Assembly (NCBI GenBank): GCA_902728285.1
Contig: CACVBU010001038.1
Span: 661,368-725,367 of the forward strand
Length of the DNA stretch: 64,000 nucleotides
DNA from: Clytia hemisphaerica
Taxonomy: Eukaryota; Cnidaria; Hydrozoa; Leptothecata; Clytiidae
Reading direction: 5' to 3'
The translations under genes were made by a program, and so were the position numbers. Below the pieces are notes generated by a model, which saw nothing but the letters and a program-made list of their open reading frames with translations, ran no database searches and was not told the DNA's origin. Positions 9,786-62,345 of this stretch are shown here, in pieces (position 1 is the stretch's first letter; each line of letters begins with the position of its first letter).

Positions 9786-12700
9786 TTACTGTATACAACC
9801 TGCTTGAAAATAACCCCACGTATAACCTTCAGATTGGTGCAGCGTCACAACTCCAACACCTCCTCCAAGCCTCCTGTAATTCATACCACATTGCAATTTC
9901 CACTGTTTCCCAGTAGGGTCGTAAATTTCGATGGATTTCAAATAGGTTGTACCATCAAAACCACCCACTGCAATTAATTGTCCATTAACTACTGATAAAC
10001 CAACACCACTTCTTCTCGAGTTCAGCGCCACAACTGGAATCCAAGTGTTACTTTTTGCGTCATATTTCTCAGCACTGCTCAACTCTGTAGCATCATCTCT
10101 ACCACCAACTAGAATAAATGGAAAAAATTAAAATCATAAAAAATAATAACAAACAGACATGGTTAATGAGTACTTTGGACAGCCCATGTTGCACACAAAG
10201 TTAAGGGATTCACCACCTAGTATATAATACTGATTTTAAGTTAGAAAGAAGCAACACATTAGCTTAGAAAACAGTCTTTATTTTGTATTAGAAATAACGA
10301 ATAGTGTTACAAGACAGGTGCATCTTAAGATCATACTTTCAAGATTGTTCTTACCAGCATATATACATCCTTGGTAAACAGCAGCACCTAAATGTTTACG
10401 TTTGGTTCCCATTTGTTTGGCTGATGTCCAGGTACTAGTTGCTGGATCAAACCTTTCAACTGAAGCTAAAGGCGATGTTCCGTCTGATCCACCAATCGCA
10501 TATAGATATCCATCCAATACTGACACCGCAACCCCTGAAAATCAAAAAGAAGAATAGTTCTCTGAATTGAAAACTATCGAACAGTGAATGAAAAGCTAAA
10601 AGGATGATAGCTAACATACCTCAATATATCTAAAAATTCAAAAATTTGAAAATATTCAAAATATTTAAATACCCTTATAACATCAATAACAATTATAATT
10701 TTTACTGATTGGAAATCGATAAAAACTACACCAATTCTACACATCAAAACATACCTAGACGCCTACAGCTCATTGGAGTGACACGTGACCAAGAATTAGC
10801 TTTGGAATCGTAGCGTTCAACAATATTCAAACAAGATACACCATCTTGCCCACCAACTGCATACAAATAACTATCAAGAAATGAAATTAAGCTTTATAAA
10901 ATAAGAATTATTATTAGGGTAGGGCGTCAACAGTCATTTTTGGGGCAAAGTCAGAAAATTCAAGATGTAGTGTTTTTTTATGAAAATTTAACCTATTGTG
11001 AGGCATTCTGCGCAATTTTTAAGGTCAAAAGTTCAAAATTGGCCGAACCCCCCTGGGGGTACTGATTCGCACTACAGGCAAAAATTGGAAAAAATGGCAT
11101 TTTCTGGCCGTTTCAGGCCTGTAAATATGTCAAAACTATTGCAAATCTTATTTTTTTCACTTGCTGTACTAAATTTTATGAAGAAACGACAAAATAATCA
11201 TATTGGTTTGAAAATTGTGCCCATTGGAGCCCTATACGAGCCGTTTTAAGCCAAATTTGGGTAGCAAAATGCTTTTTAAGGCCAATTTTGCAAGCTCATA
11301 AACTTTAAACTGATTGATTCACATGTCTGAAATTTTCAGAGATGGAAGTCTTCAATAAAGTCTTTAAGCAAAATGAATTTCAAGTTTTTCACTTTTTTCA
11401 AAAAATCATAATGGCGTCTTCAAAAATCGCTTTTTAGCAAAAAAAAGTCATATTTCTCAAAAAATAGCATTTTTTAAGGCAAGCTTCTACAAACTGAGTT
11501 TAAATGCTGACTGATTTTTTTTTTGCAGTGATAGTATACTGGAGATACTCCAGGGAAATCAAAATCATTTGGGTCTGGGATGTGTCTACGTCTGCCATTA
11601 TGGAAATTAAATTCCTGCTAAGAGCCATTTTTCAGGCAAAAACCCAAATTTGGACTGAAAAAATCTCTAAAATGTCAATAGACATGGGTCCAAACTTTCT
11701 TGCAGTGATAGTATTCTGGAAATACTACAGGAAAATCAAAGTCATCTGGGCTTGGGATTTGGGTATATCCACCATTTTGGAATAGAAATTCCTGTTAAAA
11801 CGCAATATTTCAATCAAAAATCCAATTTTTGACTCAAAAAATCTTAAAAATGGCAATAGACATGAACCTAAAATCTTTTTGCAGTGATAGTCTTCTGGAA
11901 ATACTCCAGGGAAATCAAAATCGTTTGGGTTTAGGATTTGGGTATATCCGCCATTATGGAATTGAAATATGTGTTAAAACTGGCTAAAATACAACGTTTC
12001 AAGCAAAAACCCCGTTTTTGAATAAAAACTGCTCTAAAATGACAATAGACATGGACCCAAATTTTTATGAAGTGATAGTATTCTGTGAATATTCCTGGAA
12101 AAACAAAATCATTTCAGTCTGAGATTTGTTTACATCCACCCTTATGGAAATGAAATCTCTGTTAAAATACATCATAATTGACTAAATATTTTGTATATTA
12201 TATTAAGCAAAGAGTGTGAATTTACAATCCTTTAATTTAGAAATACTAGTTGAAATAAATTATTTAAAAAATCCCATTTCACTCAACAATTCTTTTATAG
12301 CCCACTTACATTTCCATTTTCAAGACTTGTTCCGTCAAAAAAAGATGAATTTTAGCTTGAAATATTATATACATTTTAAAACTGGCTTCAGTCCAGAAGC
12401 ATCTTATACCTGAATAGTTTTTACCCCTAGAGTATTTACAGAATACTATCACTGCAAAAAGATTTTAGGTTCATGTCTATTGCCATATTAGAGCAGTTTT
12501 TAAGTCAATATGGGATTTTTGCTTTAAATGTTGCAATTTAGCCAGTTTTAGCACAGATTTCAATTCGATAATGGCGGATATACCCAAATCCTAAACCCAA
12601 ATGATTTTGATTTTCCTGGAGTACTTCCAGAAGACTATCACTGCAAAAAGATTTTAGGTTCATGTCTATTGCCATTTTTAAGATTTTTCGAGTCAAAATT

Positions 12701-15520
12701 TGGATTTTTGATTGAAATATTGCGTTTTAGCAGGAATTTCAATTTCAAAATGGTGGATATACCCAAATCCCAAGCCCAGATGACTTTGATTTTCCTGCAG
12801 TATTTCCAGAATACTATCACTGCAAAAAAATTTGGACCCATGTCTATTGACATTTTAGAGATTTTTTCAGTCCAAATTTGGGTTTTTGCCTGAAAAATGG
12901 CTCTTAGCAGGAATTTTATTTCCATAATGGCGGACATAGACCCATCCCAGACGCAAATGATTTTGATTTCCCTGGAGTATCTCCAGTATACTATCACTAC
13001 AAAAAAAATTTCAGTCAGCATTTAAACTCAGTTTGTAGAAGCTTGCCTTAAAAAATGCTATTTTTTGAGAAATATGATTTTTTTTTGCTAAAAAGCGATT
13101 TTTGAAGACGCCATTATGATTTATTGAAAAAAGTGAAAAACTTGAAATTCATTTTGCTTAAAGACTTTATTGAAGACTTCCATCTCTGAAAATTTCAGAT
13201 ATGTGAATCAATTAGTTTAAAGTTTATGAGCTTGCAAAATTGGCCTTAAAAAGCATTTTGCTACCCAAATTTGGCTTAAAACGGCTCGTTTAGGGCTCCA
13301 ATGGGTACAATTTTCAAACCAATATGATTATTTTGTTGTTTCTTCATAAAATTTAGTACAGCAAGTGAAAAAAATAAGATTTGCAATAGTTTTGACATAT
13401 TTACAGGCCTGAAACGGCCAGAAAATGCCATTTTTTCCAATTATTGCCTGTAGTGCGAATCAGTACCCCCAGGGGGGTTCGGCCAATTTTGAACTTTTGA
13501 CCTTAAGAATTGCGCAGAATGCCTCACAATAGGTTAAATTTTCATAAAAAAACACTACATCTTGAATTTTCTGACTTTGACATTTGACGCCCCACCCTAT
13601 TATTATGCTTGATAGATATGTTTCCAATTCTAAATTTGATTAAAGGAATTTCTCAATTAAAAGGAATGCAGAAGGTCAAATATTTTTAAAATAATACATA
13701 CATGTAAAATATCATAAAAAATAAATTGAGCATCTTACCCATCAAGAACAGCAACGCCTACACTTGTACGACAAGTGCTTGTTGGGGAAACGTCAGAGCT
13801 CCACTGGTTTGTTTTGGGGTCATATCTTTCAACAGAGTTGAGATAGCTTGAACCATCATGTCCTCCAACAGCATAAAGTAATTCATCTAGAACTGATACA
13901 CCAACGCCACATCTACGTTTGTTCATACTGCAAACCATTTGCCATTCATTTTTCTGTGGTTCATACCTTCAGAGGGTTAAAAAAGATTAATTGGTTAATC
14001 ATTGCACTAGTCTGCGATTTAAGATATTCATGATATGCACCATTGCAATGTCTTCCATTCCACCCAATAGCTGATTGGTTGAAAGTGACGTTTTGACTGA
14101 TTTTACGTCACTTACAACCAATGAGCTATTGGTTCCGTGATGTAATGTCAGAAGACATTGCAGTGGTGCATATCATGAATATAAACAGGAAACTAATATA
14201 ATTATGCTTCATAATCGATCTAATGTAGACATAATAGGTTTGAGTATATGAACACAATTTTAGAAGCAACACGCATGTAGGTGTGTCAAGGCAAGACTTC
14301 AAAGTAATGAAAAACCCAATCCTGAACTCCTTTTATTTATCAAGGCCCTTGGGAATAAAGAATAAATGAAAAAATGAATACAACTGACAAAAGGAAATTA
14401 TTATGAAATAAAATTACCTTTCAACACTGTTAATTGCATCCCCAGTACACCAACCACCAACTGCAAACAAAACTTCACCTCTTTTAGTGGGTTGTCTAGC
14501 TTTAAACCTGGAACCCTGCTTCAGAAGTCGTTCTTCTGGTAAAAGCAAGTAGTTCTTAGCTTCATCAACAAGTTCTCTGCAATTCTCATCACTTTTTATT
14601 AACAAATCAGCACTTACAACACCAACCAGAAATCTTGCATTTAATAATGGTAATCGAACATGTTTAAGAACCTGTTTCAGGCTTGAACGTCTGTCACTTA
14701 TATTAAATCGTACCCATTTCATTACCGATAAAAATACCTCTTCTTCAGAAATAACATTTAGTTCATCACTTGCGATGATATCACAAAGTTGATCTAACAG
14801 AAGAAGCATAAATTCTTCACTGTCTTTTACATCTTGGAAATTATGTAATGTGAATAAATCAGCAATATGCAAAAGTTCTGTACAAGCATGTGTATCTGCA
14901 AATGATTTTATTCCTAAACAATTTGAAGGATCTAATTGTTTTTTCAAAAACTCACAACAAGCGTCTTGAATTTCTTTCAATTGAAGTAAGCAAGCTGCTG
15001 GAAGAATTGTCTGTACGTTATTCTCATCAATTTTGATGATGGATGTGTATGCAAAATCAATTAACTGTTCCATTGCTTTTTCATCAACATCTTTAATCGT
15101 CACCTCATTTTTCCTGCTTTCTGCCATTTCTCTGGTAAACATTGCTCTGAAATATGGGCAACAAGCAGATAGAACAACTTTGTGACATCTAAACTCTTTC
15201 GATCCAACACAAATCAAAACATCACATAGCTCATTATTCTTACGCAAACTGTCAAGCATGGTCAGCATCGAGGTTGGATACTTTTCTGATTTATGAAGAA
15301 AGTATGGCTTCAAGGCCATGTTAGTTTGGTTTAATTTAAGAGGAATAATGGAACTGGATCTTCTATGATGATGGTAGTAATCCATAACTTCATTCTCATC
15401 ACATGATGTACTTGATTTGTTTTCCAAAGATTCTGTATCTTCTTCCGATGATCCTCCTTGGACATCTTCCAATGGAAAATCCATTTTAAATTGCAAAATT
15501 ACTTTTTTGTTTTGGTTCAA
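9786..15520 (-). CDS. KLHL20: Kelch-like protein 20 (BTB-BACK-Kelch CUL3 adaptor)
   Basis: KLHL20 is the substrate-recognition subunit of a CUL3-RING ubiquitin ligase. Coding exons: 14418-15520, 13739-13966, 10755-10870, 10355-10534, 9786-10108. All are GT-AG with matching phases, giving 1950 nt, or 649 aa (human is about 609). Residues 1-80 form a low-complexity acidic or His-rich leader without family similarity. The BTB domain is about 90-200 (ELCDVLI..., [17 protein letters not shown]), BACK about 205-310 ([17 protein letters not shown]), and six Kelch repeats run from about 355 ([20 protein letters not shown]) to the C-terminus. Blocks such as [20 protein letters not shown] and [12 protein letters not shown] are nearly identical to vertebrate KLHL20, so orthology is firm. 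The tail after GGGVGV differs and ends GYFQAGCIQ. The first ATG in the frame was chosen; a later one at codon 13 (MDFPLED) is possible. Intron 2 holds a 2.7-kb foldback element, and intron 1 a 159-bp MITE. Confidence 0.95.
10917..13597. mobile_element. Giant foldback (palindromic) element in KLHL20 intron 2
   Basis: The left arm (10917 to about 12150) and the right arm (about 12420 to 13597) are near-exact inverted copies. The outer ends are GGGTAGGGCGTCAA and GGGTGGGGCGTCAA. Both sides are flanked by TATTATTA (10909-10916 and 13598-13605), an 8-bp target duplication that is low in complexity and so only suggestive. Each inner arm is built from four tandem units of about 180 bp, each starting gcagtgatagt(a/c)ttctgg. 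Short open frames here are by-products of the repeats. The element is unspliced intron sequence and would fold into a hairpin with stems over 1 kb in the KLHL20 pre-mRNA. Confidence 0.85.
14024..14182. mobile_element. 159-bp hairpin MITE in KLHL20 intron 1
   Basis: The two halves are inverted: atattcatgatatgcacca and gcaatgtcttc at the left match gaagacattgc and tggtgcatatcatgaatat at the right, with one mismatch over about 32 bp. The interior pairs too (ccaatagctgattgg / ccaatgagctattgg; agtgacgt / acgtcact). No coding capacity. Confidence 0.8.
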
Positions 15521-17169
15521 TATTAATCTAATCTCAACAGGAAGAAAGTAAAATGAAAAATAAAATCATTTTCAAGGAAGGCCCACTAGAATAACTTTAT
15601 ATTGAACATTACATAGTATATATAGGTTAGAATTTTATGACTGTATTTTGGAACTGTTGGTTATACTTTTTTATTAAACCTTTTTAATAAGACACAACTT
15701 TAAATTTGATAAAAACTTATAACCTGATTAAACTTATGACTTCAATGATTTTAAAATCTCAATTTCGTAAAAATACAGTAAAATAAAAAATTTAACTTAT
15801 AAACCTAGCTACTTGGAAGAAGTGAGAAGCAAATCTGAGCAAACCTCTGACTTTGACACATTTTGAATATTACAATGAAATTCAAAAGAGATTGAGGAAA
15901 TCCTTCATTTCAAACCTGATTTATATACTAATTTTTTCCGTGACCACTGCAGTTGAGTTAACAATTAAATTCTGTGATCTTTGTCTTTCTAAAGGTATAA
16001 AGTAAACCATAAAACCCCTTGAAAGTTTTTTTGAAAATATCATGGACCCCTTCTAGGTTAGAATGACCTTTGAAATCACAATGTCAAAAATTTAAAGACT
16101 CCCAACATTAAATCAATAACGCATATAGTTATTATAAATGTGTACTCTCGGGTACCTAATAGCCGGGGGGGGGGGGGGGTTGAATAAAAATGTCCTGGAT
16201 GGAAAATTTTCAAAAGGAGGCTAATACAGCAGAATTAGGGAACGTAAAAAAAATACTAAATTTATTCTTACATTGCTTTGCTTTTTAATTATTCAACCTT
16301 AGGAAAAGGTCCATTTCCTAAACTAGACAGAGTCTCCCTTAATCAGGAAAGAATTTAAGAAGTGTTTACAGGATATAAAATAGGACTTTTATAAACTCCA
16401 TCGCATCATTAAAACAGTAACATAATGATGCCTAATTAGTAAAAATGAATGTAAACTAAGAATTTTCTTGTCATTCTTTTGATGCTCTTGATTTTTATAA
16501 TTTTATTCAACTATTAAAAAATTGTCCATAGAATGCAAACGGTTCCAGCCCCCAGTAATTTTCAAGCTAACGAAAATAGGCACCAGCAAAATTTTAAGAA
16601 TGTAGCCCTGCCACCTGAAGCGAAAACTTGAAAAGAAAATTTTGCTTGTTAGTTTTAAAAACAAAATGAACCTTCACCTTCATCTCCATAAGCAAACATT
16701 GCTAAAATCAAAGTGATGCAGATCTTGATTAAATAAGCTGGGAATAAAGATGAAATATGCTAAGTTTTATGGGTATAAGGTATAATAAATTAGAAGTTTG
16801 ATAAAACTGATTTTTCAAATATATTGAAAACTTAATCATGAAGCTCAGCTCCCAATTCAATTAGTAAAAATTCCGCCCCCAAAAAACCTAGCCCCAGCAT
16901 TAAAAATAAATTCAGCCTTAAACCAAGCAAAATGATTTAGACCCCCCCTCCCTAAGCTCAGAGGGGGTCCATTCTATGATTGTTTTTAAGCAAAGTAGTG
17001 ATGGAGTGTAGTGTCCATCACCTAAAATTCTCCTTTTCACCACCAGTTTGGAGAGCTTCTTGACTTGTTTTCTTTTTTTTTTCAGCCTAACCAGTTCCTT
17101 ATCTTGATACCATTTTCAGCCTCAAGTCCCTTATAAATGTGTTCCTTATAAGAAATGTGTAGCTAATTG
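15521..17169. other. Spacer upstream of KLHL20
   Basis: It should hold the KLHL20 promoter and 5' UTR, but no motif can be fixed. There is a 15-G run at 16165-16179. The stretch from about 16530 to 16980 has C and G runs like the interior of the element near 8743-9135, possibly a degraded relative. No supported coding exon. Confidence 0.4.
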
Positions 17170-27167: not shown

Positions 27168-27649
27168 CACCACATACCATGAAGTCAGGTAACTTACATC
27201 AGTAAAAGGGAAACTTGCATAGCTATTCATCAAATGCCTGACCAACCATTGTAGAAACGATGTTAAGTCCGCGCCAAATTGTTATTTATTTAAGCTGAGG
27301 TCTACGCCAAAAAAACTTCTGCTTGCAGAAATTGCAGGGTTTTTTTTGGGGGGAGGAGGGGGCGCAGTAAGCCCTCCAAGTGGGATATTTTAAGAGCCAT
27401 TTTCTGTAAGAATCAGGCAGGTCGAGGAAGTGATATCCTCAGATTTTGCTATTTTTGATATTTTGTTCAAATTGATGAAAATAGCATCCTGTGCAAATTT
27501 TTTTGAAAAATCTTTTTTCGTTCCAAAGATATGGGTCTTTAAGATTTGGGCCAATTTGCCCAAATAAGTGCAATTTTGGTAAATCCTTGACTTCAAGAGC
27601 AATTTTAGACATGATCAAGCTTAAGATTCATTTCAAAACATATTTTCCA

Positions 27650-28715
27650 GGGTTCAGGTTTCAGGGTCAGGGTTCAGGACCAGGTTTCAGGTTTCAGAGC
27701 CAGGGTTCAGGTTTCAGGGTTCATGTTAAAATTGTCTACATTGCAGACCAGAATGTTCCGAGGTATATTTTTTTATTCTGTAGACCATTTGCTAGAGTTC
27801 ATGTTCTATATAATAAATGTGTGTTTTCTTTTTAAACTTTTAATAGTTTGGTGGTGAACAATACTTTTTAAAATATGAGACAGCAGGTACTACAACTTTC
27901 AGCGTTGCTTTGAAAATATTTCATAATTCAATTGACTTAGTAGAAATTATCTTTTTGTTACAAAACTGGTTGAATAAACAATAATTAAGATTATTGAAAT
28001 TAAAATATTCTATTACAAGCAGAATTATAAATCAAAGCATTGATCAAGAACAATTACTATTATATTGAAAAATATATTAATGGGCAGAATAATAACGAAA
28101 ATAATAAATTCTATTATTCCTCCTATAAAAAGAAATATGGCAAAACGCTTATCGTTTTTTGTAAGAGTAAGATCAGGCCCAGTGGAAATCATCAGTATAA
28201 TTAAATTATATTTTCTTTCAAAGCATGAAAGTAATCAAATCACCCACCCATTTTTTGAAAAGAAATAGTTTTTTATAAGACTTATTCGGTATGATGAAAT
28301 TGGCTGGAATAGAAGCTGACGAATTTTTTTTCTCTTTTCCGTAAAACCTGGCAAAACTAACTTAATTTTTTGTTGAATTTGTGTTCTTAAAAGAAAAATT
28401 TCATCGTCGTTCGTAACAACTTAGCTTTTATTACTCAAGCGAAACACTAATTGTAAACACTTTTATCAAATAAAGATGTGAAAGGTCAGGTGTGAATGCA
28501 TTCTTGTGCATTCCATTCAGCCCTTGCTTTTTTGTTTGATTCCCCCCACACAAAAAGAGTAAAGTAAAGGGAAAAGATAAGTAAAGAGGTCAGTAATTTG
28601 AAAACAGCAAGTCTGTATTGTAGACAATTTTAACCTGAACTCTGAACCCTGAACCCTGGCCCTGAAACCTGAACCCTGGCCCTGAAACCTGTAACCTGAA
28701 CCTGCGTTTCGTACT
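27650..28715. mobile_element. Insertion bounded by inverted GGTTCAGG microsatellites
   Basis: At 27650-27725 the unit (a/c)agggttcaggtttcagg repeats in tandem, followed by ttaaaattgtctacattgca. At 28612-28710 the inverse, tgtagacaattttaacctga and then repeated ccctgaaacctgaaccctgg, closes the segment. The two ends are inverted tandem arrays. The segment interrupts the left arm of the 4.7-kb palindrome, so it arrived later, or the array expanded there. The interior is AT-rich and non-coding. Confidence 0.65.
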
Positions 28716-32129: not shown

Positions 32130-33218
32130 GCTTAAAAGTGGCTCAAAATAAGCTTATATTCTATTTACACTCTACTTCGTTATATGGCGGTTAAGGGAGA
32201 GGTGGAGAGCGAGGTGGATGCGCTTAAACCTGATGCAATGAAATCGGATTTTAGAATGGCGGTGCTCCTCTTGTCTTGAAAAACTTTGACTTATGCCGAT
32301 ATCTTACTTTATATCCGCTCCTTGCGCCAATACACTAAAAGTTTTTACTGCCTCACTCCAAATATATTTGGCGTACTGTGCGCCATTTCCACGCTGGCTG
32401 ACCGACCAAAGCAGCAAAATTTCAAAACAAATGAACTACACAGCTCCACTCGGAGCTCTACTCTACCATTTTAGAATCTTATATTTGCTACCCAAGTATT
32501 TTTGGCAAGATACTCGCCGACAGATTCGCGGGTTGATAAAACAGTGTGGTTGGATTACTGTATAAAAAATCATGCGAGATCATAAATTGGATGGCGGGAA
32601 TTCAGACATTTCTTAATTGCTGCTGGACGTGTAACCTCAAATTTGATAATGATATTAAACATAATTATACATGACAACACTTTCATGATTAGGAAATATT
32701 CATTTTATAAACTGCAAATTTTGTAAATCAGGTTTTTTTTTTATTTTAATGACCAGTCCAGTCAGGTCATTCACTTGAGGGCTATGCATGTTAGCCTCCA
32801 CTGATGCAAGTTACCTGATCTCACGGTACTTTATGGTACTACTAATCCAATTCATGGAATCCGATAATTGACCATTACTGATACACTGTTGGTGGTTGGA
32901 ATCAGCTCTCCTGAAGTTGAAATAATTAGGGGTACAAACTATTGGTCACCTTCATCTGCTACAACATCCTATTATACTACATCCATTCCTGCAACTTTGT
33001 CCAAAGATTAGCAAATCTGCAGGGTTTATAGATTGAAATTTGTCGATTGCCTACATGATTTCTTTTCTCCGTCCTTCAAACGCTGCAAACCCTTCAAATT
33101 TGGGACCAAAGATTTGTAAATATGGGTTTTTTGTAGGGTTTGTAGGGTTTGCAGTGGCCAAAAGTTTGTCCCCAAACAAATTCAAATTATGTCTGATACT
33201 CTTTTAACTCGTTTTACA
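32130..33218. other. Spacer upstream of the SDR gene
   Basis: It holds one solo arm (32745-32834) of the repeat described at 25903-26256: aatgaccagtccagtcaggt, then agggctatgcatgttagcct and ccactgatgcaagttacc. The motif gtagggtttgtagggtttgcag occurs at 33135-33155. A splice acceptor (cgttttacag, ending 33219) lies just before the SDR start and suggests a 5' non-coding exon somewhere in this interval. Confidence 0.5.
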
Positions 33219-33239
33219 GGTACTAAAAAAGTATTCGCC

Positions 33240-34226
33240 ATGGCGTCTTTGGAAGAAAGGGCTGAGAGTAATTTGAAGATTCCATCGTGCGTTCTAATCA
33301 CTGGGGCAAACAGTGGATGCGGATTCGACTGCGCGCGACAACTGGCTTTAATTGATGGCGTCAACAAAATATATCTGGCATGTCGCAGCCTTGAAAAGTC
33401 TGAGAGTGCAAAGCAACAGCTGGAAGAGCTCACGAACACAAGTAAATTTGAGGTTTTAGCTATAGATGTTTCAAGCTTAGAGTCTGTTCGCGCTGGCGTG
33501 GAACAGTTGGAAAACGAGCCTGTGATTGATGGTGTTGTTTTGAATGCTGGTGGTGCCGGTGGAAATGTACCAAGTGAACTGATGTCAGCAGGGGTCACCG
33601 TGTCAATGGCAGCCAACTTATTGGGACACGTTCTGTTAATAGATGAATTGATTATTGCGGGAAAGATTGCAGGGAAAGCAGCTACTGTAATTTATGCTGG
33701 TTCTGAATCTGCTAGAGGTATCCCAGCTATGTCTCTCAAACCACCAAATCTTGAAACGGGCTCTGTAGAAGAGTTCATAAGTATTTGCGACGGTTCGTTT
33801 TTTACTGAGAATGAGGCTAAAAATCCCAAATATATGGGTGGTCATGCAAAGTTTGTTGGTGCTTTATGGATATCGTCGATGGCTCGCAAGCATCCCGAGA
33901 TTCGTTTCATTACCGTCAGTCCAGGCGCAACAACTGGAACGAATGCTAGAAGAACTCTACCCTGGTATAAACGCGCATTTGTTGGGGCTTTGGTGAATCT
34001 TCAATCTTTGGTAGGATTGGCCCACTCTGTGGATATCGGGGCGAAACGTTACATTGATGCCTTGCTGGATCATGAGAATTATCAGTCTGGTATCTTCTAC
34101 GGCAGTAAGAAAGGACTCTCTGGTGAGATGGGCGACCAAGCAGTGTTTCTGGATTATTTTGCAAACGGGAGCTTTCAAGATAATGCTAACGAGGCTCTTC
34201 ATAATTTCATAAAAACTGCAGATTAA
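33240..34226 (+). CDS. Short-chain dehydrogenase/reductase family protein, single coding exon
   Basis: It is an NAD(P)-dependent oxidoreductase by fold; the substrate is unknown. The 328-aa frame has the Rossmann glycine motif TGANSGCG (21-28), an acidic DVSS after strand 4 (76-79), NAG (102-104), the active-site-region Asn in AANLLGH (126), a catalytic-type Ser in AGSESARG (155 or 157) and SPGA (227-230). The usual YxxxK is not canonical: the segment is YMGGHAK, with Tyr198 six residues before Lys204 and Gly at the normal Tyr position. The start was set at 33240 (gccATGG, good Kozak context) because a splice acceptor (ttttacag) ends at 33219; an in-frame ATG at 33189 would lie in that intron. 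Unlike its neighbours it has no intron in the coding region, and it is more GC-rich, so retroposition or transfer is possible but not shown. Confidence 0.85.
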   Translation: MASLEERAESNLKIPSCVLITGANSGCGFDCARQLALIDGVNKIYLACRSLEKSESAKQQLEELTNTSKFEVLAIDVSSLESVRAGVEQLENEPVIDGVVLNAGGAGGNVPSELMSAGVTVSMAANLLGHVLLIDELIIAGKIAGKAATVIYAGSESARGIPAMSLKPPNLETGSVEEFISICDGSFFTENEAKNPKYMGGHAKFVGALWISSMARKHPEIRFITVSPGATTGTNARRTLPWYKRAFVGALVNLQSLVGLAHSVDIGAKRYIDALLDHENYQSGIFYGSKKGLSGEMGDQAVFLDYFANGSFQDNANEALHNFIKTAD

Positions 34227-40944: not shown

Positions 40945-43900
40945 ATGTTTGCGCCGAATCTTTCAATGCTGCTGGTCTCATTTATATCTGCTCTTGTGTA
41001 CAGTGGTCAAGTTGGTTATGTAGTCCAAAAAGTCAATGAGCTTCTCCATTGGAAACTTGGATGTAATCCAACCCCACCTGTTGGTAATTATTATTTAGTT
41101 TTATTCCTTTATGAAGTTCCCCTGAGATGGTAGATAAGACAATTTTCCACCAAATGATTTTCAACGAAGTTCAAGTTATACATATTGTCATTTGATTCTG
41201 CTTCTGCGGTGTTCAATTTTGATTATTTGTTATATGAAAATATCTACACTCATTTTTTATCAGAACAATCTTTAAGAACAATAAGGCCCAAAATTGTCGA
41301 AGAATAATAATGTTGTGCATCGAATTGCTGAATCTTAATAAGCAATCTAAAATCCAAAGTATTAAAAATTGGATATAAAGTCTAAAATACCTCGGTTGAT
41401 CCTAAATAATAAGAACAGGATAAGAACAGGCTTGAAGTGCCAAAAATAAACAACAGCCAAGCATTCAATAGCATTTTAATATTTAATATTTATGAAGTTA
41501 ACACGTTTTTTTTCTTTTTACCAAAGGAAATGTATCTTTACATTATTTCAATGGTCGCGGTAAAAGTGAAGCGATTCGCTTATTGATGGAAGATCATAAT
41601 ATTCCATATACAGAGACTAAATACACCCAAGAATTATGGAGAAATGCACAACCGCTTGGCATTGAAGATGGTCTTTATCATTTTGGTGAAAGTGAGTTCA
41701 AGCAAAATTATTAAGTAATTATTAAGTTTACAATTGTTAATTACAATATACCTTTTCGACCGTAGCCGCCAATTGCCGCGCGGGCATCTTTTTGTCCGTT
41801 TTACCACCCTAAAACCGTCCCAGTCTTTTTTTCGCACCTAAAGACAATAGAAAAAAGTGTAAGAAAAGGATTGGATCGAGGGTGGTAAATTAAATAATAA
41901 AGTGGCACGCGCCTGTTCACGCGACTACGATCGAAAATGTGTTACTGTGTAAATTTGACTTTGCACTTCTTTGCACTTCTTAACCCTATTATTATCAGGC
42001 CTTTTCGGGGTTCCTATTCTCAAGGGGGTGTGTTTTCCACCAGCCTTGCATAACTTTTGATCTAGAAAAGTTATGGACTTGAAACTTGGCAGAAATATTC
42101 TCTACCATAAGGAATTAATAGAAAAAAATTCTGTTTTGATTTTCTGAAAGCCAAAAAGAATATCTGCCGGTTTTTAACATACTGATGTGATAACATTGAC
42201 GTGTAAAATCTATGCAGAAGATGAGTAATTTTTTTCAAAAAACAATGACGTCATTTTTAATGAGTTCATCAAGTTTTGATTTTTTTTTAATATTTTCTGA
42301 GATATTTTATAGATACCTAAAACCTGTCAAAATTTGAAGTTAATTGGATGCCTATATCAAAAGTTGTGCTTAATTTAAAATTTTTTGATTTTACAGGATT
42401 TTTAGCTGGATTTTATGATATGCCTGGACAAAAAAGTCATAAAACCTGATCTGGTCGGTGTATAATTGTAAAATTTGGTATACATGCTGCTAATAAGATT
42501 ATATTTAAAGTCAGAGTGTTAGAATTTTTTTTCAGTGAGCTATTAGCAAAAGAGTGCCAGGCTGGTGGAAAAACCACCCCCTCTCCGATAAAAATAGGGT
42601 TAAACTTAAGCAATATATAGAACCCGTTGTTCTTGTTGTCTTGTCTTGTCGTTTTTATGCATATATTTCATATTATATCTTTATTTGATTCTTCGTTGTT
42701 TTTTGTTTTTAGTTCCATCAATCGAAACCATCAAAGGTGTCAGGCTATCCAAAAGAAAATGTAAGAGACAATTTCGGGGTTTCAGCACTATTTTTAAAAA
42801 TGATATTATTGTGTGAATTGATTTCGGATGATTAAGATGATTTGTTTGACACCTTTCAGAATAAAAATCAGGAGACTCGATTTAATTGCGCACTTTCTAT
42901 ACCTTAAGGGAACTAATTTTCGTGGTGCGAGGGTACTAAATTGGTGCATTTTCTTTTCTTTTCTTTCTGCTGTAATTCTTTCATATTCCTAGGCGTTTTT
43001 GAGGATTTTTATTAAACATTGCATTTCACGGTAGACACCCAAGAACGCGAAAATTAATTCCCGCAAAAATTAGTTCCGTGAAAATTAGTCCTCTTAAGGT
43101 AAACAGAGATTATAGCATGAGTTACTAATTATCGACCTACTGGGGTCGGGAGGAATAAGTTAAAGCTCTTGATATAGAGTTAAACGCTATTCTTTATAAT
43201 AACATCCAAAACTGAAGCTTTCAGATGTTCGTAATTTTTAGGGTTTTAAGGGTAAAAATGTTCATACTGGTTCATAAAATGTTCTTATTGTCACCATCTC
43301 GTTACTACTTTTGTGCCCATTTCTAAGAAATTGGGTGTTTTAGAGTCTATGAGGCCTTAACTTAATGTTCTTAACTTGTCCTTTCGAAGCCTTCTGTTCT
43401 TTAAATAAAAAAACGTGTACGTGGGACTCACAAAGTTAGCCCATGAATGAGAGAGCCTGTTAAGTTTCAGCCACCACGAGTTCAGCCAAAAGTGAGTTCG
43501 TTTTATCACTAAAGGAAATTTTCTCTCGGATTGTCCTTTATGTTGTCCAACTTAAAAAACAAATGTTTGTGAGTAGTACTGAAAGTTTTCTCCTTTTTTT
43601 CAGCCATTTTGCATTTCATTGAAAGTTTTCGCCTTTTTTCAGCCATTTTGCATTTCATTGAAAGTTTTCGCCTTTTTTTCAGCCATTTTGCATTTCATTG
43701 AAAGTTTTCGCCTTTTTTTTCAACCATTTTGCATTTCATTGAAAGTTTTCTCTTTTTTTTCAGCCATTTTGCATTTCATTGAAAGTTTTCGCCTTTTTTT
43801 CAGCCATTTTGCATTTCATTGAAAGTTTTCGCCTTTTTTTCAGCCATTTTGCATTTCATTGAAAGTTTTCGCCTTTTTTTCAGCCATTTTGCATTTCATT

Positions 43901-46900
43901 GGACGAAGTGTTGGATTGGATTGCGATTGCCATGAGATTGATTGGTGTGATATGGTTGCCACAGCTGTCGGTATGTCCTTAAATCACCATTCATTACTTC
44001 CAAACCTTTCTCTATATCAACAGGCTTTTTCTAGAAATAATCTGCTCATAGGGGCGGGGGTTGAAGGATATATCAGTCTTCGCCACAATTAGTTTTACTG
44101 TATGCAGTGCTGACGAGTCCTGCCGAGTGCTGTTCTGCCACCCGAGTCTCCTGGAAGAAGATAGTTAGACAGAAATTCTATGAATTTTTTCACTATACTT
44201 TTCAACGATCTATGCCATGCTTGTGCATAGATTTTCTTTACTCCTTAGACACTTATTTTCCACTGGACAAGTATTAAACTGACCTCCTTCACTAAATTAT
44301 AACTATATTATTATCTTTTTCTGGAACAGCATAATACACCATAACTATGCTGCCCTTCTCCAACAATTAGAGGGTGGAAATCACCAATGCTAATATGTTA
44401 AAGAGAAACTTTGGCTGAAATAATTGTCCATATGGAAATTTGTTGTATTAGGTCAAACATAATACAATCGACGCAGAATTGTTGACTATTCATATTTTAT
44501 GTCGATTTTGTAAAAACTACAAAATTGATATGATATGTAAACCGGATTCCTGCTGACCGTCTTTGAGTTTTCCGGTAATTACTATAACATTCCATGGCTA
44601 GATGAACTAATCATCAAAACAGGTGTCTTATTTTTTATTGAGTGATTTCAATTATAAAAAATAACTCCTCGATTACAAAAGAGTTGCCGCAATAAAAAAT
44701 TATGCTTTGGCTAAGCTAGTTACCAAGTAGCTCATCTAAAGCATGCATTCATTCACGTCTTTGGATAAATGTATTGCAACATTACTAATTATCAGAATTG
44801 ATATAAAATAATCCAATTATTCAATAACAAGTAATTGATAATCTATTAATTGATCAGTTTTGTTTTAATTTTTAAAATGGACAACTTTCTTAGAATAATC
44901 TCCAAGTCGAAGGGAATTCGTGAGCTAACTTTATCGGCTGCAAACTTTGTGCATATTCATTGATTCATTCTCATTGTATATTCTATTTTTCCATCCTTGA
45001 ATTTTATAAGTATCTTGTCTATCTATTGCACAACCGTGTCTGTTAGTCTTTGTAGCTCGAACTTCTATAACTCGAATGTCTCCTTAACTCGAACAAGTTT
45101 TCTGGTCCCTTCAGTTAACGATGCCTTATAAACCATCTCCATGACTCGAAATTTCCCTAATTTGAACAAATAAGTGTTTTTCCCGTACGTGTTCGACTCC
45201 GCTGTAAAACAATTAGTGCAGTCATGTGTTTGGATATCTGCAGATGATTCATAGATTTTTGTGCTGACAACCCGAGAATTTAAGGTATTTCAAGAATTTC
45301 GAGAATTTAGTCTTTATGTGTGATTACCATACCGACTTTTTGAGTTGTTTTGCGCGTCTCGGTTGTAACTATCATTAATTAGTTGAATTGAAAAGCTCAT
45401 TAATAACTTTCCAAAATGACTCGCTCTAATGACTTGCTTTCGGTACATTTTCCTGTATAAATTTGATCGAAATTTCCTTTGCCATTCAATAATAACCGCC
45501 TAAAAGAATGTGATCCCAGCTGGCACACAACGTTGTTTCAACGTTTACAACGTCCATATAACATTAAATGAACGTTGAAACAACGTTATGTGCCAGCTGT
45601 GGTGTTGATTGTCTGACTCCTAAGGTCAAAAATTGTTTACAACTCACCCCATAGTATTTGAGGAACTAAGGCGGTGGTTACACGTAGCCGGGGTGGTATT
45701 CACCTCGGGGTGAAATGGAAAAATAATTCGGCCCGGGGCGAAAAACATTTTGGGATACACGTCGGTGAAAGGCCGTTTTTTCAATCCGGGGTGAAAATTT
45801 TAACTTATTAAAAAACCTAAAAAAACCTAACCATGCATAACTTTTAGATTTTTATCAGTACACAACATCGAGCAGGAAAGATGTCTCCTCTTGAAAACGA
45901 TTTCACCCCGCCTAAATACGTGTATACAGAAACAGTGTTTTCTTTATAGACCGGAGTGAATTTCACCCCGGCTACGTGTAACCACCGCCTAAGGGATAAT
46001 CGAGTTCACCAAATTCCTTTACTCACTGTCATGATTTGATTTTAAAGCTAAATGTAGATAGCCAAATATTTTTCAAGCTGTATTTTGTCTGTCGATTAAG
46101 CACCCCCCGTCCACTGAAGTTTTATATTCTAGTTCATGCACCTTATTACCCTTTTGATACTATGGCAAAAAGGGGAGTAGGGATTTCAATTTGCCTGACA
46201 GAATTACATAGAATGTCAAAAAAAGAAAGTTTGGGAATTTTAGTTCCATGATCATGATCATTTTTGCATCTCTGCGTTTGACCCTGAGCTGGGCTTGAAT
46301 CCTTCTGACCGATTTTATATTGAAATGCCTCTTGGTGCTATTCTTTTTTTCCCTGAGGGTCAAAATAATAATTATCGAGTTGGAGTTAACAAAGCAGTTT
46401 CTATGCCAACAAAGTTTAAAAAAAAGAAAGAAAGTGCTTATACCTGAACTATTTCTTTGCCCATTCATAGGGAACAAAAAATATCATAAAAAATGGCTAA
46501 TGAGGCCAACAAGGTGTGTTTGATTATTTCGTCAATCATATCCTTGCTAGAAAGAAAGGTTTTTCTAAATTCAGGTCTATCTTCCGTGCCCTCAATATTA
46601 TGGCCGTAATATTCGCTTGTCTGAAACAATCATCATTGGTACAGATCAGGTTATTCTTGTTATTATCACGTACGTCATTGATGTTTTGTCGCACTAGAAG
46701 AATAATACATATTTTTTTCGATTGAAGGTCAAAACTTTAGTTATTGATTTCCAGAAGAATTCGAACCTAAGGGTCTGGAGAGGGGATACTAGGTTTGCGA
46801 GCTTATGGGTATGTGCCGCCCGACTTTCGACCCTCGGACCCTTAGTTGGACTTAAAAAAAGTAGGGAAGATAGGAAAATTGTGCAAATTTTAAGTCCCTT

Positions 46901-48006
46901 ATTTGGCAAAATTTCCTATTTTTCGATTCTCTCAGTACCTTGCATTTGTCATCAAGTCATTATAGTGACCTCGTATTGACAACCAATTAAAAGTTCAATG
47001 TATCTCCTCGATAAGTAATGTACTTAATGTATCTCATTTAGTCACCATTACTCAGCTGAGGAGTAACTTGTAGCTGGTCATCAGTTTTGATGTTCACCGA
47101 TTTCCGGATAGGATTGTATAATCCGGCATTATATCACGACAGTTCATATGTCGCGTTTAACCTTTTTTGGATATCTCTAACCATATCATATCAATTAATA
47201 ATTTGATTTCCAGACAGTGGGAAACAACCGCTTCTTACTTACGCCTTGATTTCTGAAGAAAAAGCTTTCTAAAGCTCTTTATCATTTTAATTTTGTTACC
47301 CTCTTGGTCGCTCTAGGCGCTAGAGAATTCCGTTGCTTATTCTAGACTAGTAGATCAACTCTATTATACCTTCTTATCTATTGGCTTTTTTTCCCAAGAC
47401 TTAATCATTTAACTATATTAGGAGTATTTCCCTGAGGATGTGGTATATCACAAAACAGTTACAAAACGTTTAAACAAATTGATTTGAAGTGACATTCACT
47501 TGAAAAATGCGGCGCAAATTTTAAAGGCTTCCCTTGTTCTTGCTTAAGAAAGGTTGAAGATTCGCCTGTAGCCTTCGGCTTGAAACTAAATTGGTCTAAA
47601 CCATTTTCTAGATGACTTACAGAAACAGCTGGAAAATACAGTATTCACTCAACCAAAATTCGACCCCTTCATTCGAGATTCGTATGCTAAAAACATTTTG
47701 ATCCCTTGGCTTGGATATTTCGAGAAATTACCGGAATCCAAAGATACCAATTACGAAGATGAGATTTATTTTGCCGGTGGAAGATTAACATGGTTAGATT
47801 ATTCAATATTTGATATGCTAGAAAGTAATTGCAATCTATTGGACTATACAGAAGGCTGGGATATCCCTTCACATTTAAACTGTTCAACTGTATTTGAAAT
47901 GTTCCCTCGTTTAGATAGACACTACAATACGTTCAAATCTCGATTGAACATTCATGAGTATATCAATAGTGAACGAAGGACTAGTTATGGGCCACCATTT
48001 TGGTGA
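40945..48006 (+). CDS. Glutathione S-transferase, Pi/Mu-like, with hydrophobic N-terminal extension; 5 coding exons
   Basis: GSTs conjugate glutathione to electrophiles. Exons: 40945-41083, 41527-41691, 42713-42760, 43884-43970, 47612-48006. All are GT-AG with phase 1 at every junction, 834 nt, 277 aa. Residues 1-46 precede the GST fold and include NLSMLLVSFISALVYSG, a likely signal anchor or signal peptide. The thioredoxin-like domain starts at VSLHYFNGRGKSEAIRLL (Tyr53 is the expected catalytic Tyr), with the cis-Pro segment GEIPSI (Pro103) and ILHFIGRSVGL. The helical domain contains DMVATAVDDLQ, PWLGYFEKLPE and FAGGRLTWLDYSIFDMLESN. At the glutathione Gln-Ser position of Pi/Mu enzymes this protein has Lys-Arg (LSKRKSIL, 113-120). 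An acceptor (tctttgtag) before exon 1 implies a 5' non-coding exon. Exon 4's acceptor lies in a 40-bp tandem array. Usual length without the extension is about 210 aa. Confidence 0.85.
41984..42599. mobile_element. piggyBac-like MITE in a GST intron
   Basis: TTAA (41980-41983) precedes CCCTATTATTATCAGG, and TTAA (42600-42603) follows CCGATAAAAATAGGG. TTAA duplication with CCCT tips is the piggyBac signature. Subterminal inverse pairs are ccaccagccttgca / gccaggctggtgg and gggggtgtgttttcc / ggaaaaaccacccc. No transposase. It lies between GST exons 2 and 3. Confidence 0.75.
42902..43099. mobile_element. 198-bp MITE in a GST intron
   Basis: The left end, CCTTAAGGGAACTAATTTTC, is inverted at the right end (gaaaattagtcctcttaagg) with one or two differences. 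TA flanks both sides (42900-42901 and 43100-43101). It lies between GST exons 3 and 4. Confidence 0.7.
43185..43420. repeat. Dispersed MITE family, copy 1
   Basis: Ends such as tataataacatccaaaactg and ttaaataaaaaaacgtgtac, with internal gttcttattgtcacca and cttaacttaatgttcttaac, match the copies at 57787-58045 and, interrupted, at 61302-62345. The TIR of the family reads tacacgttttttttataa. It lies in the GST intron before exon 4. Confidence 0.65.
43581..43902 (+). repeat. Eight-copy 40-bp minisatellite containing the GST exon-4 splice acceptor
   Basis: The unit is gaaagttttcgccttttttt followed by cagccattttgcatttcatt, about 40 bp, repeated eight times with few changes (the fourth copy reads caacc instead of cagcc). 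Each unit contains a polypyrimidine tract, an AG, and the first 17 nt of the GST exon. Only the last copy (cag at 43881-43883) runs on into the real exon, ggacgaagtgttgg. The array is therefore a tandem duplication of intron end plus exon start. Confidence 0.92.
45517..45599. repeat. 83-bp near-perfect palindrome (CAGCTGGCACA...)
   Basis: CAGCTGGCACACAACGTTGT continuing into ttcaacgtt is inverted as aacgttgaa and caacgttatgtgccagctg, with one mismatch over about 29 bp and a 24-nt loop. AACGTTG units repeat inside each arm. It is a compact hairpin MITE or a fragment of one. Confidence 0.8.
45670..45989. mobile_element. 320-bp Harbinger-like MITE
   Basis: GGCGGTGGTTACACGTAGCC at the left is exactly inverted at the right (ggctacgtgtaaccaccgcc), and ggggtg / caccccg extends the match. 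TAA flanks both ends (45667-45669 and 45990-45992), the 3-bp TWA target of PIF/Harbinger elements. No transposase. Confidence 0.8.
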
Positions 48007-59239: not shown

Positions 59240-61301
59240 CTGACAGCTACGGTGATTTATGACTGAACGTTTGTGTGGAGAGAGGCGGGTCCAATTTGCC
59301 ACAATTATTTTCTAAAGACATTCGTTTTCATTAACAAAAAAGAACAATAGTAATTGATTATGAAGTAATTGATATTGAATAATGGTTCTTTTATTCCTTG
59401 GTTTTAATGTCCTTCTATTTTTCAACGAATTTTGTTCGGTTGGATAATTAAGAGTCGATAACGAGGCTCGGAAATGAACCAATCCGTAATTATTGAACGA
59501 CGACAAATATTTCATTTATGTAAAGAATACCTTCTCTCATTAATTACCCATTTTGCGATGCTTTGCTTTTTGTTACCACCGGCTAGCCTAGTTTAGCCTC
59601 TTCTCTTTGCAGCTAGATTTTTAACCTTATTTTAACCGACTTATAGAGGCCTAGACAAATCCTTCCTGGTCTTGTGGTTTATTAGTTATACATGTCTATC
59701 GGACTACTATTTCTGATTTAAAGGAATCGTCCGAATCGGGCAAACGTATTCTAAGTTCTGCGATCAAAGGTGAAAACAGACTTTAGACGACACATTTAAA
59801 TTTGTCCTCCTCCTTATACTATATCGTTTGCGGTTTTGTAGAGGTCTTCGATTCAGACTAGGGACCTAGGAGTACCTGGGATCTAGGGATTACCAATAAG
59901 TGTGGACCAAGGTTTTTGTAAATCTTCCCTCAAAATCTAAAGGAATTTGTCAATCCTTAGAGAGACTTATTTGACTGAAATTTTTCCACCTATAAAGAGA
60001 CTTTGAAGTAGCATATAAATGACCACGCCTTTTTATCCAGGTATCTTCACCGGGTTTTTAGGATTCGGAAAAATATCTACTAGCATAAGTGCTAAAGATA
60101 AAATGGCCAAATAGGATGTTCCATTTTAAAAGACCATACAGGGGGGAGATAAGAACCTTTATAAGTCATAAGAAGATTGTTGAAAATGTGTCGATACCCC
60201 TGAAAAATGGCGAAATTTGTGAAAGTACCCTTGGAAAGATTATTTTCATACCTTAAAGTGAGGGTGGATAAACTGAAATCAGTCTTTTACCCGCTGGAAA
60301 TTTTAAAATAACTTTTTACCCCTTAAAAAAATGAAAAAAGACCCCCTGGAAATTTTTCTCGGATTACCCTCTGGGAATGTTCGTCCACCCCCTGTATGAA
60401 ATGGCCCAATGAAAATGGATACTGAAACAGAATTTACTTCCAGCCACACCAGATTTTTTAAAAGTGATAAACGTTTCCTGTTTGTCTGGTATTTTCACAC
60501 TAACCATTTGCGGCCTGTCAAATATGAGACAGCAGACATATCTTGCTAAAACTAAATTGTCACCATGTTTGACAGTTGTCCACCTGCGCGGTACACCCAC
60601 GTTCAGACTCAAGCTGGCTTTGGCTCATAGTTCGGAATATATTGTAATTAAAAGACTTTTACACTAATTTGTAGTGAGAAAACAATATTCTTATGATGGT
60701 TGTTTCGGTACCGTTTTAAAAGGTCAGAAAAATTTCGTTAACCTTTTTCAAAATATTATGGGGGAGATACAGGAACAATATGCGATATTCATGGCGCGGA
60801 GAACCCTAAAAAAGACCTTGCGTTTGCCACTAATTTTGAACTTAAACAATAAAACTATTGGTAAACGGGCTTTTTTGTGTGCTTCCGTGAGAGAGAGTGA
60901 ATTTGAGAAATTTCGTGTCCAGAGTTGAATCTTTCGGGAAAAGACGTGATTCTTATTGTATTTGCCTTATTTCATAAAATTGAAATCCCATGCTTAAGAT
61001 TTTAAACCTGATTTCTTTTCTGCACCTGATCAACATCGAGGTCGAAAAAAAAACACCGTCCTGTTAACTCTTTTTAACTTCACCTTAATTGAACCTCGTG
61101 TCTAAATATATGTAAAAGTTATTAGGCAAAACATGTTAAAAACTTCAAACTTTTGAACTTTGTGACTGCAATGGTGAATTTAAGTTATATGTGAAATTGC
61201 CACACTATTGAATGTAGCTAACCATATGAGCAGTGCTACTTTCAATTCATACTCATTTTGAGAAAACGTTATGTTAATTTGGAATTTTTTAAGTGAAAGC
61301 A
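59240..61301. other. Spacer upstream of the ShKT gene
   Basis: No gene supported. gaccatacagggggg at about 60132 and ccccctgtatgaaatggcc at about 60390 are roughly inverse and may bound a 280-bp repeat. Otherwise unremarkable AT-rich DNA. Confidence 0.4.
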
Positions 61302-62345
61302 TACACGTTTTTTTTTTATAAGAACAAACTATATAAGTATACGTATCCCTTACGCTGGCCCGACAGGAGAACAACTTGTTTCTGCATTAAAAAGAAAATT
61401 AAAGTTTTGTCTCAAGAAAGACACTAATGTCATGTTTCGAGTAATCTATTCAACACACAAAATTGGCTTCTACACCAACATGAAAGACCCAACACCCTTG
61501 AAGTTCAAGTCGAACATTGTTTATCGATTTATCTGCCCTGGTTGTCGTGCCTCTTATGTCGGCAAAACGGAGAGGAATTTATTCACGCGATGCTCAGAGC
61601 ATGCTACAAAGAAGGAGAGTGCAGTTCTCGAACATTTGAAGGAGTGCTCTGAAGTCAAGTTTATAACTACCCTCCTGACGCTTGGTATTGAAAAGCCTAA
61701 TTTTCGCTCCATCTACATAAATCTCGTAAATGATAATACGTCAGTAATTGATTCCAGTGATAATTGGTCATCACTTCTATACAAAGAAGCTTTACATATC
61801 AAAAGACTGAAACCTATTTTGAACAACGGCCTAAAAGCCTCTAGAGAATTATACCTTTTTTAACTACTTTTTATTACGACCTTGTCTTTTAACCATTTTA
61901 CAATTTTAATAGCCTTCAATTAGCGCATTTTTTTTTTCCAATTTTTCACATAAGTAGCAACTTTGTAATTTTACATTTTACAATCCTGAAAGATGAGTGA
62001 AGTTATGCTCGAAATATAGATATTTTATCAAACATCAATTCGTTGTCAATTTTCTGATCAAGATTATGATAATGAATTCACTATTCGGAATCTCTTTCGT
62101 ACTCTTTTAAACTATATAAGAACATAAGGCTTCGAGGCCCAAAAATTTAAGAACATTCTAAGAACATTCTAAGGCTTTTGAGACTTAAAACATGCAATTT
62201 CTTAAGAAATTACATCAAAATGCTCAAAAAATGCTGAAAATAAGAACATTTTAAGAACATTTTTAGGCTTCAAATCCAAAAAACTAAGAACATCCGAAAG
62301 GCTTCGAAAATTTTTGACGTTCTTATAAAAAAAAACGTGTACATC
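61302..62345. mobile_element. Dispersed MITE family, copy 3, interrupted by a Penelope-like fragment
   Basis: Left end tacacgttttttttttataa and right end ttataaaaaaaaacgtgtac form the family's TIR. The two halves (61302-61337 and 62111-62345) are separated by an insertion that duplicated ACTATATAAG. The right half carries the repeated phrases aagaacatt and aggcttcga of the family. Confidence 0.75.
61338..62110 (+). pseudogene. Penelope-like retroelement, 5'-truncated, GIY-YIG endonuclease end
   Basis: From 61348 the open frame reads PYAGPTGEQLVSALKRKLK, then FRVIYSTHKIGFY..KDPTPL, the region linking the reverse transcriptase to the endonuclease in Penelope-like elements. The GIY-YIG part follows: SNIVYRFICPGCRASYVGKT, with ERNLFTRCSEH and LEHLKEC; the usual YIG is YVG. 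The frame stops at 61861-61863 and the 3' tail contains gctcgaaatatag. Insertion left ACTATATAAG on both sides (61328-61337 and 62111-62120). The reverse transcriptase is missing, so the copy cannot move by itself. Confidence 0.85.

What the first reader, a model, noticed from the sequence alone, without database searches (positions are those of the whole stretch)
43581..43970. Minisatellite that multiplies the 3' splice site of a GST exon
Eight tandem 40-bp units each contain a polypyrimidine tract, an AG (one mutated to caa) and the first 17 nt of the fourth GST exon. Seven functional-looking acceptors therefore lie in front of or at the true one. Use of an upstream acceptor adds multiples of about 40 nt (39-41), which shifts the frame for most choices, yet one 120-nt step would keep it. 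Such an array could tune splicing, or be a polymorphic tract that switches GST isoforms. Seen directly; the functional effect is inference.
Basis: partly seen in the sequence, partly recalled or inferred. Interest (0 to 1): 0.75.

Follow-up and report, generated by a model that had tools for sequence, protein, structure and literature searches.

The report
Minisatellite repeating an exon's splice acceptor
In one eukaryotic genome a glutathione S-transferase gene carries eight head-to-tail copies of the signal that marks the start of one of its exons; only the last copy leaves the full protein readable, so it is a natural test of how cells choose among identical splice sites.

Summary
Window 43580-43899 is eight tandem units (40/39/40/41/40/40/40/40 bp). 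Each carries a possible branch site, a pyrimidine tract, CAG (CAA in unit 4) and the first 16-18 nt of GST exon 4 (43884-43970). Four of eight units, the last included, are identical. The array has one match, itself, in the 417-Mb assembly, and this gene has no close paralogue there; other GST genes exist.

So the array cannot switch between full-length GST isoforms; at most it can switch productive against unproductive mRNA. A close relative's protein (9 of 277 positions differ), from contigs too short to hold introns like these, has the junction made by the last acceptor. Whether that relative has the array is unknown. Two other relatives' exon-4 reading frames show no array upstream, over about 168 and 28 nt.

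Best reading: a lineage-specific minisatellite made by tandem duplication across an intron-exon border, tolerated because the copy touching the exon body always remains a complete acceptor. It mirrors the human ABCA7 VNTR, which repeats a donor. No RNA data were available.

The parts
40945..41083 (+). GST coding exon 1 (ATG at 40945), 139 nt; donor TTG|GTAATT
   Evidence: Translation agrees with P0002 apart from listed differences; genome hit L008
41527..41691 (+). GST coding exon 2, 165 nt; donor AAA|GTGAGT
   Evidence: (L007)
42713..42760 (+). GST coding exon 3, 48 nt; donor AAT|GTAAGA
   Evidence: IPSIETIKGVRLSKRK agrees with P0002; not reported by the genome search
43580..43899 (+). Minisatellite of eight 39-41 bp units (TRF extends it to 43901); units 3, 6, 7 and 8 identical; changes seen are in the pyrimidine tract of units 1, 2, 4, 5 and CAG->CAA in unit 4
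43601..43603 (+). CAG of unit 1 (upstream acceptor, +280 nt, stop after 149 aa)
43640..43642 (+). CAG of unit 2 (upstream acceptor, +241 nt, stop after 136 aa)
43680..43682 (+). CAG of unit 3 (upstream acceptor, +201 nt, multiple of 3 but stop after 163 aa)
43721..43723 (+). CAA of unit 4 (acceptor lost; +160 nt, stop after 136 aa if it were used)
43761..43763 (+). CAG of unit 5 (upstream acceptor, +120 nt, multiple of 3 but stop after 136 aa)
43801..43803 (+). CAG of unit 6 (upstream acceptor, +80 nt, stop after 136 aa)
43841..43843 (+). CAG of unit 7 (upstream acceptor, +40 nt, stop after 147 aa)
43881..43883 (+). CAG of unit 8: acceptor that yields the 277-aa GST
   Evidence: the junction peptide SKRKSILHFIGRS is present in P0002
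43884..43970 (+). GST coding exon 4, 87 nt; first 16-18 nt belong to the array; donor TCG|GTATGT
   Evidence: genome hit L009
47612..48006 (+). GST coding exon 5 with stop, 395 nt
   Evidence: Pfam GST_C_3, E 6.1e-11, on the open frame 47590-48006; genome hit L006

Best explanation
A 40-bp stretch spanning the intron 3 / exon 4 border of a GST gene without close paralogue was tandemly duplicated to eight copies in this lineage. The stretch ran from the TG of a branch-site-like TGAAAG, through the pyrimidine tract and CAG, to the first 16-18 nt of the exon. Because the unit is a whole acceptor plus exon start, any gain or loss of whole units still leaves one intact acceptor joined to the exon body. 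The most likely working state is that the spliceosome mostly uses the exon-proximal (eighth) copy, probably because that copy alone sits beside the exon body and is closest to the exon 4 donor (exon definition). Occasional use of upstream copies makes mRNAs with premature stops, most of them expected targets of nonsense-mediated decay. The array is mainly a tolerated, nearly neutral minisatellite that may cost a small share of unproductive mRNA. Shown: array anatomy, reading frames, stops, one locus in the assembly, the junction in a relative. Inferred: duplication history, acceptor preference, NMD, near-neutrality.
For: Eight near-identical units, four fully identical. Both ends carry the same TG (AC|TGAAAG on the left, AT|TGGACG on the right), as expected for tandem duplication at a 2-bp microhomology (sequence; 2 bp can be chance). 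The 277-aa frame is open only from the last acceptor; 7 of 7 upstream positions end early. P0002 (277 aa; 9 of 277 positions differ; 5 member sequences; longest contig 1356 bp) reads straight through SKRK|SILHFIGRS; intron 4 alone is 3641 bp here, so that contig should be spliced. A search with the one-unit-insertion product returned 2 proteins, neither containing the insertion. Relatives P0011 and P0012 enter exon 4 from sequence without the unit, so the array looks lineage-specific. In ABCA7, where a VNTR repeats a donor, the isoform retaining one unit was about 2 +/- 1% (PMC5954066, passages read).
Against: No RNA from this organism was available, so acceptor use is not observed. Unit 8 is identical over all 40 bp to units 3, 6 and 7, so nothing within the unit favours it. 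Scanning and proximity rules (recalled: Smith et al. 1993; Reed and Maniatis 1986) can favour an upstream AG. P0002 is from another strain or species, and its intron 3 is unknown. Six of seven upstream AGs are kept, which selection against them would not predict if they were often used. The numbers of mutations are too small to test either way. That P0011 and P0012 are orthologues, and that their upstream residues are intron, is inferred.
Confidence: 0.68

Rival explanations
1. Splicing rheostat: the number of upstream acceptors sets, or lets the cell regulate, the share of GST pre-mRNA sent into premature-stop, NMD-targeted mRNA, and the array is kept for that.
For: Every upstream choice is unproductive. 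For units 1-6 the stop lies 108-269 nt before the last coding exon junction, beyond the usual 50-55 nt rule (recalled). Upstream units have 13-15 of 17 pyrimidines at -20 to -4, against 15, 14 and 11 of 17 at the other three GST acceptors. In ABCA7, longer VNTRs went with lower expression (PMC5954066, passages).
Against: Not present in two relatives, as far as their frames reach. No RNA evidence. For unit 7, the nearest competitor, the stop is only 35 nt before the last coding junction, so it may escape NMD. In ABCA7, unit retention did not change with VNTR size (PMC5954066, passages).
Confidence: 0.13
2. The upstream acceptors win and this allele is a damaged, low-output or null GST.
For: Six upstream CAGs have the same or nearly the same local signals as the last one. 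First-AG scanning (recalled) would favour upstream sites. Other GST genes exist in the genome (4 GST_N matches on other contigs) and might buffer a loss.
Against: All five exons keep an open 277-residue frame with 9 differences from P0002. The units have diverged from one another, so the array is not brand-new. Both are weak arguments, as frames decay slowly.
Confidence: 0.09
3. Isoform switch: an in-frame 120-nt or 201-nt extension makes an alternative full-length GST.
For: Insert lengths of 120 (unit 5) and 201 (unit 3) are multiples of three.
Against: Both frames meet a stop inside the added repeats: the products end after 136 and 163 aa.
Confidence: 0.01
4. Assembly artefact or wrong copy number.
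For: Raw reads could not be examined; repeat copy number is a common assembly error (recalled).
Against: Units carry distinct variants at fixed places. The assembly has 951 contigs for 417 Mb, with places beyond 3.2 Mb on contig C38, which suggests long reads that would span 322 bp (inference). One locus only, no second haplotype copy found.
Confidence: 0.06

Closest known systems
ABCA7 intron 18 VNTR (human, 25-bp unit; PMC5954066, passages read)
   Same: A minisatellite at an exon-intron border whose units repeat a splice site. Using the neighbouring unit adds one unit length, shifts the frame and gives a premature stop.
   Different: ABCA7 repeats a donor (the GT of exon 18) with about 12 to about 427 units, and has known polymorphism and RNA data. 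Here an acceptor and coding exon bases are repeated, with 8 units, one allele seen and no RNA data.
TERT intron 6 VNTR6-1 (human, 38-bp unit; PMC11830802, search listing and start of abstract only)
   Same: A minisatellite of similar unit length linked to splicing of its gene.
   Different: From the listing, an intronic repeat; nothing that I saw says that its unit carries the exon's own acceptor.
Tandem alternative 3' splice sites (NAGNAG type; PMC3250501, search listing and start of abstract only)
   Same: Several AGs near one exon compete.
   Different: NAGNAG acceptors differ by 3 nt. Here each AG has its own pyrimidine tract and possible branch site, and steps are 39-41 nt.
Duplicated-splice-site minigene experiments (Reed and Maniatis 1986; recalled, not read)
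   Same: Identical splice sites placed side by side so that context alone decides the choice.
   Different: This one is natural, with seven usable-looking copies in a coding gene.

Membership tests
Minisatellite (VNTR) | Head-to-tail units of roughly 10-100 bp with high identity | tested here: met
   Period 40, 8.1 copies, 96% matches
Minisatellite (VNTR) | Variable unit number between individuals | not testable with these tools
   Only one assembly is held; one locus, no second haplotype found. Relatives P0011 and P0012 show no array as far as they reach, which is variation between lineages, not within one
Splice-site-multiplying VNTR (ABCA7 type) | Each unit carries the same splice-site core as the exon border | tested here: met
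   7 of 8 units CAG|CC, 1 of 8 CAA
Splice-site-multiplying VNTR (ABCA7 type) | RNA shows unit retention or altered exon use | not testable with these tools
   No RNA reads. One protein search with the one-unit product found no protein containing the insertion, with a length limit on what it can see
Frame-preserving alternative acceptor | At least one alternative acceptor leaves an open frame | tested here: not met
   0 of 7 upstream positions (6 CAG, 1 CAA)
GST (Pfam GST_C_3) | C-terminal domain match over the curated cut-off | tested here: met
   Exon 5 frame 42.9 bits against a cut-off of 21.6; P0002 39.3 bits
GST (Pfam GST_C_3) | N-terminal thioredoxin-like domain recognised | tested here: inconclusive
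   No GST_N match for P0002 at E<=0.001, and the genome search with GST_N did not ring at this gene. The exon 3-5 query matched solved GSTs from its residue 11 or 13 on

The most novel reading that the evidence does not exclude
The array is a length-encoded splicing rheostat: each added unit adds a complete competing acceptor whose use destroys the message, so unit number, which can change fast by slippage, sets GST output heritably and reversibly while the protein stays untouched.
Probability: 0.12. Interest if true: 0.75.

Novelty: new variant of a known kind. Interest (0 to 1): 0.42.

Why it matters
It is a natural version of the duplicated-splice-site experiment: 3' splice sites in series, four of them identical over 40 bp, at a coding exon where only the last gives the full protein. 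RNA reads from one individual would show directly whether position (first AG, or nearest to the exon body) decides acceptor choice. It also shows how a minisatellite can grow across an exon border without changing the protein, because the unit carries its own splice signal. If unit number varies between individuals it could tune GST output.

Tried and rejected
Isoform switch: rejected, 0 of 7 upstream positions leave an open frame.

Genome-wide class of acceptor minisatellites: a loose pattern gave 444 matches against 246 for the reversed control. Only the first places were listed, none of them on this contig, and by eye most of those listed belong to a few dispersed repeat families. A tighter pattern (acceptor followed by a base other than G) gave 26 matches on 6 contigs, against 132 for its control: no excess. 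Three of the 26 are this array. For the places on the other 5 contigs I translated after the last unit in one locus each (two for C340) and saw no clear coding exon; the longest open frames were 57 aa (running through repeats) and 51 aa, and I did not run a family search on them. A pattern with a following G and then a base other than A gave 0 matches against 6 for its control. So there is no sign of a class in this genome, but only TTTTTTCAG-type tracts with 37-67 bp spacing were asked for in the last two.

Recursive splicing: rejected by eye, since each CAG is followed by CC, not GT. Micro-exons inside units: rejected by eye; the GT in AAAGTTTT would leave introns of about 19 nt.

Rfam: no match in the window at the gathering score. 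Organism: not identified. DNA of relatives could not be fetched (scans of metagenome contigs are capped at 0 here; I made none, and none of viral or genome contigs).

Literature: nine answered searches and one on GST with minisatellite showed no acceptor-multiplying minisatellite among the titles and abstract starts listed. Lists were cut: 15 of 585 papers, 20 of 25, 15 of 72, 12 of 14, 12 of 206. The library lacks most subscription papers. PMC11918821 (passages) has whole-exon duplications and did not help. PMC12480690 (four passages) has none on duplicated acceptors. PMC360135 is not held.
Full report
What is there. The window lies in contig C716 of a 417-Mb assembly of 951 contigs. A GST gene on the + strand has five coding exons: 40945-41083, 41527-41691, 42713-42760, 43884-43970 and 47612-48006. 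Joined, they give 277 codons and a stop. Exon 5 matches Pfam GST_C_3 (E 6.1e-11), and a query of exons 3-5 matches solved GSTs (6 distinct sequences, best E 9.7e-08, aligned from query residue 13. The first 13 residues of that query were in a wrong frame and so lie almost wholly outside the alignment). Public protein P0002 has the same length and differs at 9 of 277 positions. In the whole genome, P0002 finds this gene (4 of 5 exons; the 48-nt exon was not reported) and one weak place at E 0.26. Other GST genes exist: the Pfam model GST_N has 4 matches, all on other contigs, and does not ring at this gene.

The array. Eight units of 39-41 bp fill 43580-43899. Each reads TGAAAG, a pyrimidine-rich tract, CAG (CAA in unit 4), CCATTTTGCATTTCAT. 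The last 16 bases are the start of exon 4, and the match runs on for two more (TG). Units 3, 6, 7 and 8 are identical. Against these, unit 1 has T for G in the tract, unit 2 one T fewer, unit 4 one T more and CAA, unit 5 two changes in the tract. The core occurs 8 times in the window against 0.02 expected. The DNA of 43500-44000 has one match in the genome, itself.

Each unit as a splice site. TTCATTGA straddles each unit border. It gives a yTnAy motif with its A 25-27 nt, and a yTnA motif 21-23 nt, upstream of the exon start in units 2-8; unit 1 has only the yTnA at -22. So the copied exon start of one unit supplies the possible branch site of the next. Pyrimidines at -20 to -4 number 13-15 of 17 in the units, against 15, 14 and 11 at the acceptors of exons 2, 3 and 5. 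These are motif counts, not measured strengths. Each unit also has an AG (in AAAG) at -19 to -21, next to the possible branch site and so unlikely to serve as acceptor (inference).

Consequences for the message. Upstream use adds 280, 241, 201, 160 (CAA), 120, 80 or 40 nt. All seven end early, after 149, 136, 163, 136, 136, 136 and 147 aa. The stop lies 269, 269, 148, 188, 148, 108 and 35 nt before the last coding exon junction. Only the last acceptor gives GST. Skipping exon 4 (87 nt) would also keep the frame; this was not pursued.

Evidence from relatives. P0002 comes from contigs of at most 1356 bp yet encodes all 277 residues. As intron 4 alone spans 3641 bp here, that sequence should be spliced, if its gene has similar introns. 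It reads SKRKSILHFIGRS, the junction made by the last acceptor. Whether that organism has the array is unknown. A search with the product of a one-unit insertion found 2 proteins, P0009 and P0010, which look like exon 2 and exon 1 read with their intron flanks, without the insertion. That search sees only proteins of 0.55-1.75 times the query's length, so it is weak evidence of absence. A search with the exon 4 frame including one and a half units found 2 proteins. P0011 has 56 residues (about 168 nt) before the exon 4 junction and P0012 9 (about 28 nt); by eye neither shows the unit. Hence the array looks specific to this lineage, as far as two short, unnamed relatives can show.

Is it a class? 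Genome-wide pattern counts show no excess of spaced TTTTTTCAG triplets over the reversed control (26 against 132), and none for the variant followed by G and a base other than A (0 against 6). The looser pattern did exceed its control (444 against 246), by eye largely through dispersed repeats, but its list was cut. Of the 6 contigs, only this one was tied to a coding exon; the other five were looked at by translation only.

How it most likely works. Duplication of a unit that spans the border leaves, whatever the copy number, one intact acceptor beside the exon body. Such an array can therefore grow without touching the protein, provided the exon-proximal copy is used. Introns 3 (1123 nt) and 4 (3641 nt) are long, so exon definition is plausible (inference). 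The human ABCA7 VNTR, which repeats a donor, is the nearest precedent: retention of one unit there is about 2 +/- 1%, gives a frameshift and did not vary with VNTR size, while total expression fell and skipping of the next exon rose with size (PMC5954066, passages). That supports exon-proximal dominance by analogy only. I hold neutral tolerance most likely (0.68), a selected rheostat less so (0.13), and a damaged allele less still (0.09).

Limits. No reads, no RNA, no second individual, no DNA of relatives, and the organism is not identified.

Noticed in passing
window 11519-12167 and 12557-13007: Two arrays of 177-179 bp units whose consensus units look like reverse complements of each other, about 400 bp apart.
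   Followed up: no
window 27647-27727 and 28632-28704: Two short minisatellites of CAGGGTT-like and CCTGAAC-like units that look like inverted copies about 900 bp apart; possibly the ends of a mobile element.
   Followed up: no
window 9786-10127 and 14414-15565, - strand: Exons of a BTB-BACK-Kelch gene, or of two such genes (BTB E 5.7e-32, BACK E 7.8e-31, Kelch_1 E 2.1e-21); KLHL20-like by recall.
   Followed up: partly
window 33120-34226, + strand: A 368-aa open frame without introns that matches short-chain dehydrogenases (adh_short E 8e-14).
   Followed up: partly
window 61297-61863, + strand: A 188-aa open frame with a YVGKTERNLFTRCSEH stretch that looks GIY-YIG-like by eye (recalled motif), maybe a retroelement remnant; no Pfam match at E<=0.001.
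   Followed up: partly
G000:C378:647664-648877 (L045-L060): An array of about 19 units of 65 bp whose consensus carries TTTTTTCAG; 16 of the 26 matches; no clear coding exon after it.
   Followed up: partly
many contigs of G000, e.g. L012, L022, L024: A dispersed repeat family with short internal tandems of a 40-bp TTTTTCCAGCTGGTCC unit, by eye unrelated in sequence to the GST array.
   Followed up: no
window 43884-43970: GST exon 4 is 87 nt, so skipping it would keep the reading frame; a possible further isoform.
   Followed up: no
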